The notes under the pieces are model-generated. The model ran no database searches. It worked only from the letters and a program-made list of their open reading frames with translations, and was not told the DNA's origin. Below are positions 46,878-64,000 of a DNA stretch of 64,000 bases, one piece after another (positions within the stretch are counted from its first letter, which is position 1; each line of letters begins with the position of its first letter). The position numbers were made by a program, and so were the translations under genes. Origin of the DNA: Burkholderia sp. BCC0322 (GTDB lineage Bacteria; Pseudomonadota; Gammaproteobacteria; Burkholderiales; Burkholderiaceae); the NCBI RefSeq assembly GCF_902833045.1, contig NZ_CADFDU010000012.1:62001-126000 (forward strand), given 5' to 3'.

Positions 46878-47273
46878 TCAAGTCTCCCTGCGGCGAACGG
46901 CGAAGGCCGTTGCCCATAACTTGCATCAGTATCCGGATGACCGCTAGGCTTTCGTACGATACATGGCCGATAAAGGGGCACCATGCTAATGAGACGAGTC
47001 CCAGAACTGCGCGGAGCCGCTGAGACACCGACATCGTTATGGAAGTTGTGACCCTATTATGTGGCGCAATATCTTGTGTCGCACCATGTTGTGGGTGGCA
47101 TATAATGTGTATTTCGCGCTGAAATGACTGCCGTGAACGGTTCGCTGGCAGAACGCTTAGAACCCGAATCTTGGTGTGAGTCACACGGCGTGGTGTGATA
47201 TTTCAGATTTGCGGCGCCAACTTCCATTCCGCGAGTCGTGTCACGGGATGCAGGCTCGCTAAAGGGGTTGCCG
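46878..47273. promoter_or_regulatory. Leader and promoter region of the HipA-like module
   Basis: No gene seen. TATAAT at 47101-47106 is a good -10 candidate with a weak -35. GTGTGA and TCACAC form a perfect inverted repeat (47174-47186) around a single G, with a second GGTGTGA at 47192, a possible operator between the promoter and the ATG at 47274. Confidence 0.4.
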
Positions 47274-48089
47274 ATGTCGGGTCAGAACTGCCCTTTCGAG
47301 GAAGGGCGCCTTAATCGTGCACCAATTTTCCCGGTATCTGGCGTTGCCAATCCGGTTGTTCAAGCGCGTATTCACGTACCAGTTCGCATCGGCACGGTCG
47401 ATGCGTATGTCAAGCTGTTGAGGCCGAAGGCGTTCGCCGCCGAGTCCGTCTGCGCTTGGCTAGCCATTCGCGTAGGTTTGCCAATCCCTACACCTTTTTG
47501 GGTAACGGTTCATCGGCGCCTGCTGCAGAATCTATGGCCCTTTGGAAGTACGGAGGCGCACTTGTGCTTCGGGTCCGAAGCTGTACCGTCTGCGATGGCG
47601 CTCAGACTAGACGCGCAGTCGGGTGACGTGCTTGCGCGCCATGGCCTGCATCTCACAATGCTCGGACAAATCGCCCTGTTCGACGAGTTGGTCGGCAATG
47701 ACGACAGGCACGACGGGAACTTGCTGTTGACGTACGATGGGTCTGTTTTCCTTATTGACCATGAGCGTGCTATCGGCGGCACAGGCTTGGGTCTATTCTC
47801 GACCGACCCGCCGCTCGGACCCAATCGACTGCTCGAGCGCGTGCGCAAACTTCCGGCGAGTGACCGCATGGCGCTCGCCAAGCCTCTGCGCGAGTTTTGC
47901 GCAAATTGTGAAAGGGCGGTTTGGGCCGCTCCGTTTGAAGCGTTGGTCGAGGACGCGTCGATGCGGGCACTCGTTCAAGACTATTTGATGCGCCGAGCTG
48001 AGAGACTGCGAGACACACTGGAAGCCGTCCTCGGCATCCCGGACCTCTCAGGATTGCGCGAGTCCTCGCGCCCATCATCCGTGCTGTAA
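47274..48089 (+). CDS. HipA-like kinase-fold protein
   Basis: A 271-residue protein lacking the HipA N-terminal subdomain. The kinase core is recognisable: LKLLRPK-like (YVKLLRPKAFAAESVCAWLA, probable ATP-binding Lys), the catalytic loop LVGNDDRHDGNLLL (D..N pattern) and the metal motif FLIDHERA. This is the HipA_2-like minimal family rather than classical HipA with HipB. No HipB-type antitoxin is beside it. The ATG at 47274 follows AAAGGGG. A partner gene starts 7 bases after the stop, so the two are probably translated together. Toxin or defence function is inference. Confidence 0.72.
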   Translation: MSGQNCPFEEGRLNRAPIFPVSGVANPVVQARIHVPVRIGTVDAYVKLLRPKAFAAESVCAWLAIRVGLPIPTPFWVTVHRRLLQNLWPFGSTEAHLCFGSEAVPSAMALRLDAQSGDVLARHGLHLTMLGQIALFDELVGNDDRHDGNLLLTYDGSVFLIDHERAIGGTGLGLFSTDPPLGPNRLLERVRKLPASDRMALAKPLREFCANCERAVWAAPFEALVEDASMRALVQDYLMRRAERLRDTLEAVLGIPDLSGLRESSRPSSVL

Positions 48090-49878: not shown

Positions 49879-50412
49879 ATGCATCTGGCGAAGCTAACGG
49901 TCAAAGGGTTTCGAAAAATTGAAGAGGCGGAGATGCTGTTCCGTCCGGGACTCAACATAGTTATTGGAGAAAACAATGCGGGCAAGACGGCGGTCATAGA
50001 CGCTTTGCGCGCGCTGCTCTCGACTACCGAGGAGGGCACGCTGCGCCTTGACGAGTCTGACCTGCACGTTGCCGCGGACGGTAAGCGCCCCAGTTGGTCT
50101 ATGAATGTGACCATCAAGGAGCTAGGGACGAGCCCGCTCGTTCAGGTGAGTCTGGTCGCCGCGACGGGGCATGACATCCGCGTGTCCACTGTCCATAGGG
50201 TGAAGGGAGAAAGTATCCCTGCCGTTCTGTATGTCACAAATCCGAAGTCACTCAATAGTCTGCTGACGGGCACCGCCGATGAGGAGGGGCGAATCGGGTA
50301 TGTTGCCGTTACGCGGGCTAGTGACTTGCTTATTCTTGCGATTCCCAAGTCCACTAAAGTGGAGAAGACAAAGGAGCTGAAAACAAAGGGCTTCACTGAA
50401 TGGCCAAGTTGA
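49879..50412 (+). pseudogene. In-frame chimera of an OLD-family ATPase N-terminus and a UvrD-helicase C-terminus (Gabija-type scar)
   Basis: A 177-codon frame joins two unrelated pieces. Codons 1 to about 80 are the start of an OLD-type overcoming-lysogenisation ATPase: MHLAKLTVKGFRKIEEAEM, then Walker A IGENNAGKT. Codons about 90-170 are the end of a UvrD/Rep helicase: motif V-like VSTVHRVKGESIPAVLYV and motif VI YVAVTRASDLLILAIP. Walker B, the Toprim nuclease and helicase motifs I-IV are all absent. The simplest reading is one internal deletion that fused gajA-like and gajB-like genes in frame. It is unlikely to be functional. Upstream promoter bases and the ATG appear intact. Confidence 0.72.
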
Positions 50413-55773: not shown

Positions 55774-56100
55774 CTAGGCGTTCTGCGCTGCTTCTGTCGT
55801 GGCCGCCTGGGGTGCCGGCTTCGCAATCTTCGCTGCTTCAAAGGCGATGATGAGCAATGTGCCGGTCGGCTTGCCTTCGCGCGACAAATAGTAGTCTGCC
55901 TTGAGTTTCCCGGTGACCTTTACGAAGTCGCCCTTCGCGAGGCCTAAGTCGGCGTCTCGCATTACGCGGACCGAATACCATGTGGGTTCGGCGTCAGTAC
56001 CGCGCTGACTTTCGCACATGCGGAACTCCCAGTAGCCTCGACCGGTCGCCTTCGTCTCCTTTCGGACCGGCGCCGTTGCCACGTTTCCAAATGCTTGCAT
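55774..56100 (-). CDS. SSB-like OB-fold protein of the mobile element
   Basis: A 108-residue protein with the strand pattern of a single-stranded-DNA-binding OB fold: GYWEFRMCESQRGTDAEPTWYSVRVMRDA, then KGDFVKVTGKLKADYYLSREGKPTGTLLIIAF. SSB-like proteins of this size occur in integrative elements and plasmids and protect single-stranded DNA during transfer or replication. The C-terminus is Ala/Pro-rich and lacks the acidic DDDIPF tip of housekeeping SSB. It has its own terminator. Confidence 0.7.
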   Translation of the reverse strand: MQAFGNVATAPVRKETKATGRGYWEFRMCESQRGTDAEPTWYSVRVMRDADLGLAKGDFVKVTGKLKADYYLSREGKPTGTLLIIAFEAAKIAKPAPQAATTEAAQNA

Positions 56101-58964: not shown

Positions 58965-59229
58965 TAGCGCGGGCGCGGAGGGGGCGCCCGATGTCTAATT
59001 GAGCATCTCCATCATTCCCCCAGAGCGCGGCTTGAGCGCTGGCTCTCGCGTTGCGGCGCGAATTCTGATGGACGTCGGAGACAGTACATCGATGACCATG
59101 GACGTCATCTGCGGCAGCGTCTGGAATCGTCCACGCATTACTGTGCCGTGAGTCGACTGCATGCGTCCCGGGTATCATCGTGCCTGTGCGTCGCCCGTCG
59201 GCATTCTTCCGTTTTTCCCCGGTCAATCG

Positions 59230-61005
59230 ATGTCCCAGTCTGCAACGCTCTCCGAGGTTCTCACTTTTGCCGAAGTACGGTCGCTTACCGACACGAAGAC
59301 CTTTGCGCGCGGAAAAGCCTATTTCCACGAGGGTGTGGTTTCCCGTCTCGAGGAGCGTGGCGGTGTCGTTCACGCCACTGTACGTGGCAGGCATCGTTAC
59401 CGGGTTGAACTCGCCGTCGATGACGATGGCGAACTCGCTTACGACTGTACCTGTCCGGTGGGAGACGATGGCGTTTTCTGCAAGCACGCTGTCGCTGTTG
59501 CGCTCGCCTGGCTCGAGAATTCCGGTGAAGAGGTGTTTCATGCCGAAGAGGCGGCTCTCGGCAAGCCACGCAAGAAGCGGAAGACCTACGAGGAAGTGAT
59601 TCGCGAATACGTCGCGACGCTCGACAAAAATGAGCTTCAGGAATTGTTGCTCGAAGCCATCGAACGCGACCTGTCGTTTCGTGACAAGCTGCTGTTCGCC
59701 ACGCGTGCGACGGGGGCCTCCGACTTGCCCGGCATGAAGGCCGCCGTCATGCAGGCGACACGCCTTTCCCGGCCACTGGACTGGCGGGAGGCTAGCGCAT
59801 ACGGCGATGGCCTGATGTCGCTGGCCGACATGCTGCGCCGGAGGCTTCACGGACCTCACGCCACACAGGTAGTCGAGCTATCCGAACTGGCGATTGCGGG
59901 CGCCGAAGCAAGCCTCGAACAGATTGACGACTCCGGTGGCGACGTGATGCCGGCGATTCTCGAACTGGCGTCTGTGCACCTCGATGCCTGCAAGTTGACG
60001 GGCCCCGACCCAGTGAAGCTCGCGGAGCGGCTATTCCGATTTCAGACAGAAGGCAAGTGGGACACCTTTTACAACGTTTTGCCGGCGTATGCGGAGCCAC
60101 TGGGCAAGAACGGTTTGAGCCGCTACCGCGAGCTCGTCAACGAGGCTTGGGAAGCGCTGCCCGCGCTCGCGCCGGACAAGGAATATCGACGGTCATACGA
60201 CTCGCCGCGCATGCAGCTCGAACGCGCGATGGGGGCGCTGGCCGAACTCGATGGAGACGTTGATGCGTTGATTCGCATTTACTCGAAGGACCTGTCGAGT
60301 CCGTACCGCTTTCTGCTGGTGGCGGAGCTTTGTGTCAAGCACGGTCGCCCGGATGAGGGGCTCGCCTGGGCCGAGCGCGGCATCAAGGAGTCCGGCAAGA
60401 GCCATGACCAGCGCCTGCTCGACTTCTGTATCGACGCGTATCTGCGTCGCAGTGAATTCGACAAGGCCGATGCGTTCGCGTGGCGCCGCTTCGAAATGCG
60501 CCCGACAGCCGAGGCGTTTCCCGCCTTGATGAAGGTTGCCACGGCTACTGGCTGGCATGATGAGACGCGGGAGCGCGCTCTTACGCACCTTTGGGCGCTG
60601 GTCAGGGAAGAGGAGGCCGCTGCAAAATCGAAGCGAAATGTCTGGCAGCGGTCGACGCGGACCGAACTGGTCAAGATTTTTCTTGCTGGACAAGAGAACG
60701 ACGCCGCATGGGAAACGTTTACCGGCGGACCGGTCGCAACGCAGCTATGGCCGGAAATGGCCGCTGTCCGTGGCAAGACCCACCCGCACGACGCCATTGC
60801 CCTCTATCACAGGCTGCTGCCGGTTGCTGCCGAAAGCGGTACGCGCAACGCCCGATATGACGAGGCGTTTGAAATCGTGCGGGCAATCGGCATGTTGCGG
60901 GCGAGGTTGGATGAACGTCCGGAATTCACCCGTGAACTGGAAGAGATTCGGGCAGCGTATCGCGCAAAGCGCAACTTCATCAAGCTGCTGGCCAAACTGT
61001 CCTGA
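59230..61005 (+). CDS. SWIM zinc-finger protein with helical repeats
   Basis: A 591-residue protein. The SWIM motif CxC..CxH is visible as YDCTCPVGDDGVFCKHAVAVALAW near residue 80, after a sensor-like strand region. The remaining about 480 residues are alpha-helical repeats (for example YRFLLVAELCVKHGRPDEGLAWAERGIKESG), as in DUF6880 proteins. SWIM proteins bind DNA or other proteins and occur beside helicases in defence loci, but no partner gene is adjacent here. ATG 59230 is used; the frame extends upstream with poor composition. Confidence 0.82.
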   Translation: MSQSATLSEVLTFAEVRSLTDTKTFARGKAYFHEGVVSRLEERGGVVHATVRGRHRYRVELAVDDDGELAYDCTCPVGDDGVFCKHAVAVALAWLENSGEEVFHAEEAALGKPRKKRKTYEEVIREYVATLDKNELQELLLEAIERDLSFRDKLLFATRATGASDLPGMKAAVMQATRLSRPLDWREASAYGDGLMSLADMLRRRLHGPHATQVVELSELAIAGAEASLEQIDDSGGDVMPAILELASVHLDACKLTGPDPVKLAERLFRFQTEGKWDTFYNVLPAYAEPLGKNGLSRYRELVNEAWEALPALAPDKEYRRSYDSPRMQLERAMGALAELDGDVDALIRIYSKDLSSPYRFLLVAELCVKHGRPDEGLAWAERGIKESGKSHDQRLLDFCIDAYLRRSEFDKADAFAWRRFEMRPTAEAFPALMKVATATGWHDETRERALTHLWALVREEEAAAKSKRNVWQRSTRTELVKIFLAGQENDAAWETFTGGPVATQLWPEMAAVRGKTHPHDAIALYHRLLPVAAESGTRNARYDEAFEIVRAIGMLRARLDERPEFTRELEEIRAAYRAKRNFIKLLAKLS

Positions 61006-61382: not shown

Positions 61383-61417
61383 AAGAGAGAGCCCGCCTGG
61401 TGGCGGGCTCTCTCTTT
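61383..61417. terminator. Strong 15-bp terminator hairpin
   Basis: AAGAGAGAGCCCGCC and GGCGGGCTCTCTCTT form a perfect 15-bp stem with loop TGGT and a short T-run on the plus side. It most likely ends the minus-strand nuclease/HhH operon, whose last recognised stop is at 61582. Confidence 0.65.
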
Positions 61418-61581: not shown

Positions 61582-62472
61582 TTAGAACGAAAGCATGACG
61601 TCGTGCGCGCTCGCATAGAGGAGGACGATATCGACCTCTCGATGGATTTTGCCGTTACTGCTAGGAAGTGAGGTGACCTTGGCTGCCAGCTCGCGCGCTG
61701 CATGGACGACATTCGCGGGACCGTTTGGCGAAGCAAGGTAGTTGCGTGTTTTGCGGCATGCGGCCTCGCTCTTTGTAAGCGCGTTGAAATAGGCAAGAGT
61801 GCGCGTCGTGTGGATATCGGGCTTAATGACCTCGAAGCCCGCGTCGACCAGGCCGTGAAATACCGTCGTCTGTCCCCAGCCGATGCCCAAGGTCGAGCAC
61901 AACGGGGCAATCTCCTGTCGCAAGGCTTTGACATCCGCACACCTTCCGAGGTCTATGCCAATTTTGAACTCGGCACCGGTTTCCTTCGACCGTTGGTCGA
62001 GCCAGCGAGCCGCACTTCGCATTGCGTAAAGGCGTGCCACGGAGACGCTCGGGTACCGCGCGAGCTTCAACTTATGACGCAATTCATCTACGGTAAGGCG
62101 GTTGTAGTGAAAGCATGCGTCTGCACGCCAGCCCCTTTTCTGACGCGGCAAATAACTCATCTTCCACTCGGGCGACAAGAACTCTTCCATCGACGGAAAC
62201 AGCCCCGCCGACCATGCTTGCGTATAGAGGCCGGCTGTAGTCAGCGCCATGTTCGAGAAGAGGGGCTTCGAGCCGAAGGCGTCCCAGGCCGTGCTCAAGC
62301 TCAGCGGTCCGCTGGGTAGACTGGAGACCGCACGAGCGAGCTCGTCCTGCACGAGAGGGTTTTGAAGTACCCGGTCGCGCAGGCGTGCATAGCTCTCGGC
62401 CGTAAGGGTTTGGTTTGATGGCGTTATCGGCTTGAGCGCTTTGCGGCGCGCACTGGTCTTGCAAGTATGCAT
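61582..62472 (-). CDS. Helix-hairpin-helix/DNA-glycosylase-like protein (third gene of the operon)
   Basis: A 296-residue protein. Its centre has LCSTLGIGWGQTTVFHGLVDAGFEVIKPDIHTTRTLAYF, the layout of the HhH-GPD/OGG fold (hairpin LGIGWGQTT in place of LPGVGxKTA, then a conserved KPDIHT in the position of the glycosylase Asp region). The N-terminal 130 residues are unknown. I call it glycosylase-like with caution. ATG 62472 has GGAG 11 bases upstream. It is transcribed with the two genes before it, 57 bases downstream of the second. Confidence 0.6.
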   Translation of the reverse strand: MHTCKTSARRKALKPITPSNQTLTAESYARLRDRVLQNPLVQDELARAVSSLPSGPLSLSTAWDAFGSKPLFSNMALTTAGLYTQAWSAGLFPSMEEFLSPEWKMSYLPRQKRGWRADACFHYNRLTVDELRHKLKLARYPSVSVARLYAMRSAARWLDQRSKETGAEFKIGIDLGRCADVKALRQEIAPLCSTLGIGWGQTTVFHGLVDAGFEVIKPDIHTTRTLAYFNALTKSEAACRKTRNYLASPNGPANVVHAARELAAKVTSLPSSNGKIHREVDIVLLYASAHDVMLSF

Positions 62473-62529
62473 CGTGGTTCTCCGAGCGATATGCAAACGC
62501 GGCGTCAGTTCGCCGATTGACGGCAATGG

Positions 62530-63135
62530 TTATTTTGTTTCTATGTGGTCAAGAATGCGGCGAGCGACCGAGCGAGCAGCGGATGGGTCAGCGAATTCGG
62601 CTAGGTTGATAGCAAGCCGCGATACGCGGACGGATTCGAAGGAGGACGTCCTATGCCATCCGCCGTCAGACGTCGGGTAATCGGTGTTCATCCAAATCTT
62701 GTGATACCAGTTGGTCCCTTGTGGAAGCGTTTCACGCGTCTGGAAGATGTACACGAGAAGCAGGCTCTCTGCAGTGTCGGCTGGAGCCGGTGTGTGTCCC
62801 TCAAGTTCGTTCGTGTCAGATATCAGCCGAAATTCGAGCAGGAAGTCGCCTGCTTCCGGATTGTTCTCGGGCTCCTGATTGTCGCTGCTCACAGCCAGGA
62901 ATAGATACGATGCCCCGAGCATTGGAAGGAAATGCTTTCCCGTACGTTTGCCGAACGGGTTGAGGTTATAGCTTCTTGGCGGCGAGTTTGGATAGTTTGC
63001 AGTGTAATAGTTCGCACCGACCTCCCGGGCGATATCGTTCACGAGCGTCAGGAGCGCAGACTGATAGTCCGCGAGGAGACGATAGGCCTTGCGTACGTCC
63101 TGCAGGACGTCGACCAGTTCATCGCGCGATGTCAT
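62530..63135 (-). CDS. Unknown protein, second gene of the nuclease operon
   Basis: A 201-residue protein. Its N-terminal helix LVDVLQDVRKAYRLLADYQSALLTLVNDIA is followed by a mixed-strand region (SYLFLAVSSDN, DFLLEFRLISDTNEL, LLLVYIFQTRETLPQGTNWYHKIWMN). No family recognised. Its ATG overlaps the stop of the nuclease gene by 4 bases (63132-63135), so the two are translationally coupled. Confidence 0.65.
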   Translation of the reverse strand: MTSRDELVDVLQDVRKAYRLLADYQSALLTLVNDIAREVGANYYTANYPNSPPRSYNLNPFGKRTGKHFLPMLGASYLFLAVSSDNQEPENNPEAGDFLLEFRLISDTNELEGHTPAPADTAESLLLVYIFQTRETLPQGTNWYHKIWMNTDYPTSDGGWHRTSSFESVRVSRLAINLAEFADPSAARSVARRILDHIETK

Positions 63136-63953
63136 TTGTGAAAGGAGAAGCTCTCGTAGTTAATGTTCAACCGCGGTAGGGCGGAAATTGGCGGGTGGGC
63201 GCGAACAGGCTGCCGGTCTGCCGATGCCGTGGAACAAGCATTTTGGGGGACTGCAAATGCGAGCTCGAACGCTTCTACGCCAAGATTGGCACTGTGAAGC
63301 TCGTGCAGACGCAAATCCGGCTCGCGGAGAAGCCCGTGGAATTTCAGTCCGGCCTCCACATCGTCCCGCATTCGTTGATATCCCGAATGCAAAAGCGCCA
63401 CCACACCGAACGCCTCGAGCATGTCCGTCCACTTGACGGCACGTATCGTTGCTTCGGCGAAGAGCCGCTCGCCAACAAGTTGTTCCTGCACTACTGCTTC
63501 GAACGCCGACGTCGATTCGGGCGACGTGTCCTGTCGGCCGCCGACAAGAAGCAGCACGAGGGGCAATTCGTCAGCTCGCGGTTCCCCAGCAGCTACGGCA
63601 AGTAGCTCTTGAACTGCCTGTGCTGCATATTGCAGGTCGGCTTGGTCCCAACGCTTCGCTTCGACGACAATCAATGCGTTCTCTGTCTCAAGAAGCACGT
63701 CCGGCTCTACGAGCCGTCCTTCGAGTTCGAAGCGCGGCCAAAACTCGATGCGTTCGATTCGCCCGAAAGGGGCGACGTCCTCTGGCAAGAGGGCTGTCCA
63801 GAACACCGAGAGCGCGTCGTCCGAGAGATATGAAACCCGCTCAAACACAAGAGAGGTCAGCAAGTCCTCCGAACCGGTAGCGTTGGAAAGCTGCTGGGCC
63901 ATTCCCTCTAACCCAGAGCCTCTGCGCTTTCCCTGCAAAATTGCGGTCAACAT
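63132..63953 (-). CDS. PD-(D/E)XK nuclease-like protein, first gene of the operon
   Basis: A 273-residue protein. The catalytic pattern is readable as EPDVLLETENALIVVEAKRWD: an Asp after a Pro, then E-A-K 12 residues later, flanked by strand-like segments (RIEFWPRFELEGRL and LPLVLLLVGGRQD). This is the PD-(D/E)XK fold of restriction-type nucleases. An in-frame TGA 45 bases upstream shows that the gene is complete in the window. It shares a 4-base overlap with the next gene. Confidence 0.65.
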   Translation of the reverse strand: MLTAILQGKRRGSGLEGMAQQLSNATGSEDLLTSLVFERVSYLSDDALSVFWTALLPEDVAPFGRIERIEFWPRFELEGRLVEPDVLLETENALIVVEAKRWDQADLQYAAQAVQELLAVAAGEPRADELPLVLLLVGGRQDTSPESTSAFEAVVQEQLVGERLFAEATIRAVKWTDMLEAFGVVALLHSGYQRMRDDVEAGLKFHGLLREPDLRLHELHSANLGVEAFELAFAVPQNACSTASADRQPVRAHPPISALPRLNINYESFSFHK

Positions 63954-64000
63954 GTGGTGTCTCGGCGCATTGGGCGCTTGTGAGTTTCTTGTTCAGCAAA

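What the first reader, a model, noticed from the sequence alone, without database searches (positions are those of the whole stretch)
61582..63953. Compact three-gene operon: PD-(D/E)XK-type nuclease, unknown protein, HhH/glycosylase-like protein
Seen: three minus-strand genes with a 4-base overlap and a 57-base gap, a strong terminator downstream, at the edge of an island full of toxin- and defence-like genes. The first has an E-P-D...E-A-K nuclease signature, the third a helix-hairpin-helix followed by KPDIHT. Known: HhH-GPD proteins excise modified bases, PD-(D/E)XK proteins cut DNA, and glycosylase-based anti-phage systems exist. Inference: the trio could recognise modified phage DNA, expose abasic sites and cut. 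I do not recognise the middle protein or this gene order as a named system.
Basis: partly seen in the sequence, partly recalled or inferred. Interest (0 to 1): 0.78.

Follow-up and report, generated by a model that had tools for sequence, protein, structure and literature searches.

The report
Known nuclease pair plus unrelated neighbour
Two of the three genes form a widespread, already catalogued but untested pair that probably protects bacteria from viruses by cutting DNA, and the third looks like a rare, DNA-repair-like gene that merely sits next to them here.

Summary
The three minus-strand genes are real and placed as described: A 63132-63953, B 62530-63135 (4-base overlap), C 61582-62472 (57-base gap). 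The trio is not a conserved system. A and B match PADLOC's candidate PDC-M15 (1.3e-32, 3e-28). A genome scan with B gave 27 loci: A lies beside B in 27 of 27 (overlapping 19, fused 1, short gap 7), C in 0 of 27. In the closest, Paraburkholderia fynbosensis, homology to the window ends at B's stop codon. A is a PD-(D/E)XK nuclease by invariant residues and, with weak E-values, by fold. B has a confident model (pTM 0.80) but no solved relative. C occurs intact in three other genomes, none with B; its C-terminal part resembles PADLOC's OGG proteins, but Pfam's glycosylase model does not find it. In four loci A-B sits between hsdS and hsdR of type I restriction operons. Best reading: a two-gene nuclease defence candidate beside an unrelated glycosylase-like gene. 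Ordinary for the trio; moderately interesting for A-B.

The parts
63132..63953 (-). Gene A, 273 aa: PD-(D/E)XK nuclease, PADLOC PDC-M15A
   Evidence: PADLOC PDLC04456 1.3e-32; E29, D30, P84, D85, E98, K100, Q112 in 24 of 24 aligned rows; fold search of the natural A-B fusion L025
62530..63135 (-). Gene B, 201 aa: partner protein, PADLOC PDC-M15B; long N-terminal helix with D-V-R-K-A-Y-R, then a beta sheet and a C-terminal helix
   Evidence: PADLOC PDLC04468 3e-28; AlphaFold2 pLDDT 83.1, pTM 0.80; no PDB match better than E 0.21
61582..62472 (-). Gene C, 296 aa: rare protein with a KPDxH motif, OGG-like in its C-terminal part; judged a neighbour, not part of the A-B unit
   Evidence: homologues in G590, G450, G1097; hhalign against two PADLOC-OGG proteins probability 77.8, E 1.9e-5; no Pfam HhH-GPD match
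61384..61415 (-). 14-bp hairpin downstream of C, possible terminator without a T run
   Evidence: not listed on this strand by the terminator scan

Best explanation
A and B are a self-contained two-gene nuclease module, the uncharacterised phage-defence candidate PDC-M15. Shown: they are adjacent and same-strand in 27 of 27 genome loci, mostly overlapping and once fused; A keeps the whole PD-(D/E)XK active site. Inferred: the two proteins form one complex; A cuts DNA; B, a protein with no solved relative, recognises the trigger or holds A in check until infection. C is an independent, rare, OGG-like gene, probably a glycosylase without lyase activity that acts alone, and its place behind B is a chance arrangement of a defence island.
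For: PADLOC A 1.3e-32 and B 3e-28. A next to B in 27 of 27 loci: 19 overlapping, 7 with gaps of 2-59 bases, 1 fused (L025); starts chosen by me from the alignment. Also together on an Ochrobactrum plasmid (L006) and inside a phage structural gene cluster (L007). Catalytic residues 24 of 24. The 18 best PDB matches of the fusion model are titled as restriction or nicking enzymes, R2 endonuclease-bearing proteins, Can2, AF1548 or XPB-Bax1 complexes. C absent from all 27 A-B loci and from L006, L007 by blastp and profile. Window-L008 DNA homology (70.4%) runs 62530-63967 and ends at B's stop; window-L043 homology covers 61606-62274, inside C only. Defence-type neighbours of A-B: type I R-M genes, DruH in L015, HamA in L008.
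Against: No fold match of the fusion reaches E 0.001 (best 2.2e-3, low TM-scores), so the nuclease call leans on the motif. No evidence of physical A-B contact was computed (no complex prediction). The 27 loci are not independent (two Vogesella, three Zoogloea, near-identical Stutzerimonas pair, two loci of one MAG). Flanks are cut short at several contig ends. Nothing in the calls shows antiphage activity. The defence neighbours were 10 proteins that I picked by eye; no random-locus control was run.
Confidence: 0.65

Rival explanations
1. One reading: C excises a modified phage base, leaving an abasic site that A (with B) cuts.
For: The three genes lie in one direction with a 57-base gap and no promoter-like site was found there; C is OGG-like; restriction glycosylases and the anti-phage glycosylases Brig1 and Brig3 exist (PMC10273834 listing; PMC11078745 and PMC13160076 passages).
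Against: C in 0 of 27 A-B loci, absent from the P. fynbosensis genome; B absent from the 3 genomes with an intact C; DNA homology to L008 ends at B's stop; no HhH-GPD-type gene beside A-B elsewhere except one MutY-like ORF in L017.
Confidence: 0.08
2. A-B is an add-on of restriction-modification systems: a back-up effector kept silent by the host system and released when a phage blocks restriction, in the manner of PrrC.
For: 8 of 27 loci carry relatives of type I HsdM/HsdS/HsdR within the fetched flanks (L009, L022, L023, L026, L027, L032, L033, L034) and in 4 (L027, L032, L033, L034) A-B lies between hsdS and hsdR on the same strand (PADLOC names); in L032 hsdR starts 10 bases after B. PrrC is silenced by a linked type I enzyme and activated by a phage anti-restriction factor (start of the abstract of PMC2610378).
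Against: 19 of 27 loci show no such genes, nor does the window among the 13 proteins scanned; the L009 match is weak and partial; no random-locus control.
Confidence: 0.2
3. Toxin-antitoxin pair: A is a nuclease toxin and B its inhibitor.
For: Two small translationally overlapping genes, found on a plasmid and in a phage cluster (L007), in an island.
Against: The A-B fusion L025 is unusual for a toxin and a labile antitoxin; no antitoxin family matches B.
Confidence: 0.12

Closest known systems
PADLOC candidate PDC-M15 (PDC-M15A + PDC-M15B)
   Same: Both proteins match over most of their length and lie in the same order, adjacent, on one strand
   Different: Here a further gene C follows B; PDC-M15 has no published function that I could find in the held library. 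The likely source, Payne et al. [quoted passage not shown]
PD-(D/E)XK nuclease superfamily (MspJI, N.BspD6I, McrC, Can2)
   Same: E29, P84-D85, E98-x-K100, Q112 invariant; best fold matches
   Different: Fold E-values only 2.2e-3 or worse; no family in Pfam reaches its cut-off (Mrr_cat 0.21)
OGG protein of type IV CBASS (PADLOC PDLC00910; link to type IV CBASS recalled)
   Same: KPDxH...R motif and a C-terminal V-D-x-h-L motif; hhalign probability 77.8
   Different: C itself scores only 0.026; no cyclase, TGT or QueC partner named among the 13 window proteins scanned
Brig1 / Brig3 anti-phage DNA glycosylases
   Same: a glycosylase-like gene in a defence island
   Different: the passages seen do not mention an HhH fold (0 occurrences); Brig3's partner is a glucosyl hydrolase, not a nuclease pair
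Hachiman (HamAB)
   Same: nuclease effector with a partner, two genes; a HamA lies about 4 kb from A-B in L008
   Different: B is no helicase; hhalign of A against that HamA gives probability 0.2

Membership tests
PADLOC PDC-M15 | A matches the PDC-M15A models | tested here: met
   PDLC04456 1.3e-32, residues 1-224
PADLOC PDC-M15 | B matches the PDC-M15B models | tested here: met
   PDLC04468 3e-28, residues 1-198
PADLOC PDC-M15 | A and B adjacent on one strand | tested here: met
   4-base overlap; 27 of 27 relatives
PADLOC PDC-M15 | protects against phage | not testable with these tools
   bench experiment needed
PD-(D/E)XK nuclease | motif of acidic residues and E-x-K | tested here: met
   24 of 24 aligned rows
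PD-(D/E)XK nuclease | fold | tested here: met
   top 18 PDB matches of the L025 fusion model, best E 2.2e-3, Can2 probability 0.99; no match at E <= 0.001; window A itself was not modelled alone
HhH-GPD DNA glycosylase | Pfam PF00730 match | tested here: not met
   no match for C, best Pfam is SAP at 0.23; none for the other three C proteins
HhH-GPD DNA glycosylase | profile similarity to known glycosylases | tested here: inconclusive
   OGG pair 77.8, EndoIII, MutY and AlkA sets 0.2 each; OGG pair itself against EndoIII only 1.1
HhH-GPD DNA glycosylase | catalytic Asp after the hairpin | tested here: met
   D219 of C, kept in 4 of 4 C and 2 of 2 OGG rows; identification as catalytic is by motif
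HhH-GPD DNA glycosylase | Lys of the bifunctional (lyase) subgroup, 18-19 residues before the Asp | tested here: not met
   Q, Q, V or none in the C rows and no Lys in the OGG rows at that place; fits a monofunctional enzyme or an inactive one
HhH-GPD DNA glycosylase | fold | not tested
type IV CBASS | cyclase and partner genes next to OGG | tested here: not met
   none named among the 13 window proteins scanned with PADLOC
three-gene A-B-C system | conserved co-occurrence | tested here: not met
   0 of 27 A-B loci hold C; 0 of 3 genomes with an intact C hold B

The most novel reading that the evidence does not exclude
A-B is an uncharacterised immune module built from a PD-(D/E)XK nuclease and a partner of a fold without any solved relative, recurrently plugged into unrelated defence loci (type I restriction operons, Druantia- and Hachiman-bearing islands, a phage structural cluster), where it works as a back-up effector set off when the host system is blocked.
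Probability: 0.2. Interest if true: 0.65.

Novelty: new member of a known kind. Interest (0 to 1): 0.33.

Why it matters
The trio reading would have been a new kind of base-excision immunity; the comparison removes that claim. What is left is a clean, testable pair: a catalogued but, as far as I found, unstudied candidate whose B protein has a confident model and no solved relative, and whose nesting between hsdS and hsdR suggests how nuclease modules are added to restriction systems. C, if a glycosylase, would be a small unrecorded branch of OGG-like proteins in defence islands.

Tried and rejected
Rejected: the trio as one system; B as a member of a Pfam, NCBIfam or PHROGs family (nothing significant); A as a close relative of HamA or HsdR (probability 0.2, 0.6, 0.1).

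Led nowhere: C in viral contigs (90 pattern matches, none confirmed), plasmids and phages; B in phages and, with 4 rows, in viral contigs (20 pattern matches, none confirmed; yet the A scan found L007, where B is present); A, B and C profiles against PDB sequences (none; only kinase matches at E 0.6); L044 OGG against PDB (none); C in 369 genomes of the class (none) and 379 of the order (G450 again and one broken copy). B in viral structures gave only weak matches, E 0.13 and up, 21 of the 50 listed being named coat or capsid proteins of ssRNA phages; not used. Literature: no paper naming PDC-M15 in the held library; the CBASS-OGG search gave nothing useful. Genomes searched overlap and are not to be added up.

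Controls: hhalign of C against 40 random ORFs, one of which was C itself; the other 39 reached at most 5.6, but these were single sequences, and the OGG set holds only two. One search had no positive genome in it; the same profile found 34 ORFs in my loci.

Full report
Observation. The ORFs, overlap, gap and strand are as described. C most likely starts at the ATG at 62472 (296 aa) rather than the listed TTG at 62526. GC is 0.58, 0.551 and 0.586 for A, B and C against 0.653 for the window, as expected of an island. The hairpin downstream of C is strong (14-bp stem, z -7.29) but lacks a T run and the scan does not list it on the minus strand.

Identity of A and B. Pfam and NCBIfam give nothing above threshold. 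PADLOC names A as PDC-M15A (five models at 9.2e-13 or better) and B as PDC-M15B (best 3e-28). PDC stands for 'phage defence candidate' (passages of PMC11514479). The family is rare: B's model rings in 2 of 299 genomes of the phylum, A in 1 of 101 relatives, there only as a fragment (residues 1-93, L001).

A-B is the unit. A lies directly upstream of B in 27 of 27. With starts chosen from the alignment, 19 pairs overlap by 4-19 bases, 7 have gaps of 2-59 bases, and in L025 the two are one ORF of 459 aa. They also lie together on an Ochrobactrum plasmid (L006) and, on the opposite strand, inside a cluster of phage structural genes (L007). The loci are not all independent: Vogesella twice, Zoogloea three times, a near-identical Stutzerimonas pair, one MAG twice; L002 and L003 repeat L023 and L020.

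C is not part of it. Neither blastp nor a profile of four C proteins finds C in any of the 27 loci or in L006 and L007. The P. fynbosensis genome, which has the nearest A-B (66% and 69% identical), has no C. Its DNA homology to the window, 70.4%, begins just upstream of A and ends at B's stop codon; the only DNA homology of C is to L043 and lies within C. None of the three has B (no positive control inside that call). Their neighbours differ: a helicase-like protein matching PDC-S37 and MkoA in L043, a SIR2 protein in L035, a WYL regulator in L036.

Structure of A and B. I modelled the natural fusion L025 with 46 A and B relatives: pLDDT 81.6. Its 18 best PDB matches are R2 proteins, Can2 (probability 0.99), AF1548, MspJI, N.BspD6I and R.BspD6I, and XPB-Bax1 complexes, all with PD-(D/E)XK nucleases as far as I recall; but no match reaches E 0.001 and TM-scores are low because the query is a fusion. 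The alignment of 24 A rows keeps E29, D30, T33, P84, D85, E98, K100 and Q112 without exception. B alone, with 23 relatives, gives pLDDT 83.1 and pTM 0.80: a 35-residue helix, five longer strands and a C-terminal helix. No solved structure matches (best E 0.21, probability 0.03); among viral models only weak matches, many to ssRNA phage coat proteins. D13, V14, R15, A17, Y18, R19, Q25, L70 and D107 are kept in 24 of 24 rows, which points to the helix as the functional or contact surface (inference).

Neighbourhoods of A-B. Ten neighbours picked by eye were scanned with PADLOC: type I R, M or S subunits in L026, L027, L032, L033 and L034, DruH in L015, two weak or empty results in L031, none in L014. 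Using these as queries over all loci, type I-like genes turn up in 8 of 27 loci; in L027, L032, L033 and L034 A-B lies between hsdS and hsdR, in L026 just before hsdM. Five of the eight Bacteroidota loci are of this kind (phylum recalled). No control with random loci was run. In L008 a HamA gene lies about 4 kb away.

What C is. PADLOC's OGG model gives 0.026; PADLOC's CBASS models derive from Millman et al. (passage of PMC8565338). Profile comparison with two OGG-model proteins gives probability 77.8 over 85 columns, against at most 5.6 for 39 random ORFs and 0.2 for EndoIII, MutY and AlkA sets; the OGG pair itself is not linked to EndoIII by the same test (1.1). K-P-D and a following R are kept in 6 of 6 rows. 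The lysine that human OGG1 uses (K249 with D268, passage in PMC13160076) has no counterpart. If C is an enzyme it should be a glycosylase without lyase activity. Its fold was not tested.

Mechanism. Most likely A is the DNA-cutting effector and B its obligate partner, sensing or restraining; C acts on its own. Shown: adjacency, fusion, active-site conservation, C's independence. Inferred: complex, cleavage, trigger, defence. The nesting in restriction operons allows the bolder reading of a back-up effector in the manner of PrrC (start of the abstract of PMC2610378). Recurrent acquisition of a nuclease-protease pair by unrelated immune systems has been reported (start of the abstract of PMC12799240 in a listing; the paper was not read).

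Verdict. A-B is a new member of a catalogued candidate; C is a rare neighbour.

Noticed in passing
window 49879-50412 (+): A 177-aa ORF whose residues 1-78 match the start of GajA (2.7e-26) and 71-175 the end of GajB (4.9e-35): the remnant of a Gabija system after an internal in-frame deletion.
   Followed up: partly
window 59161-61005 (+): A 614-aa protein with SWIM and DUF6880 domains matches PADLOC candidate PDC-S62 (4.3e-57), convergent with the A-B-C genes.
   Followed up: no
window 47238-48089 (+): HipA-like kinase domain (PF20613 5.1e-10), also PDC-M66A 4e-10.
   Followed up: no
window 55774-56100 (-): Weak SSB-like match (0.00021, below Pfam's cut-off).
   Followed up: no
L007 5950-7507: An IMG/VR contig carries A-B on the strand opposite to surrounding phage structural genes, so phages may carry the pair as cargo.
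   Followed up: partly
L025 1566-2945: Natural A-B fusion of 459 aa in a Thiotrichaceae MAG that also holds an unfused pair, L024.
   Followed up: yes
L026 10407-11708: A second nuclease-like ORF inside the hsd locus, related to A by profile (hhalign probability 90.7).
   Followed up: partly
L001 1483-1791: Fragment of A (residues 1-93) without B in a genome of the nearest genus.
   Followed up: no
L063: Broken copy of C in G1141, with 2 TGA and 1 TAG in frame.
   Followed up: no
B model, window 62530-63135: Weak similarity of B's sheet to ssRNA phage coat proteins: best E 0.13, 21 of 50 listed matches are named coat or capsid proteins; one such coat also at rank 19 for the fusion.
   Followed up: no
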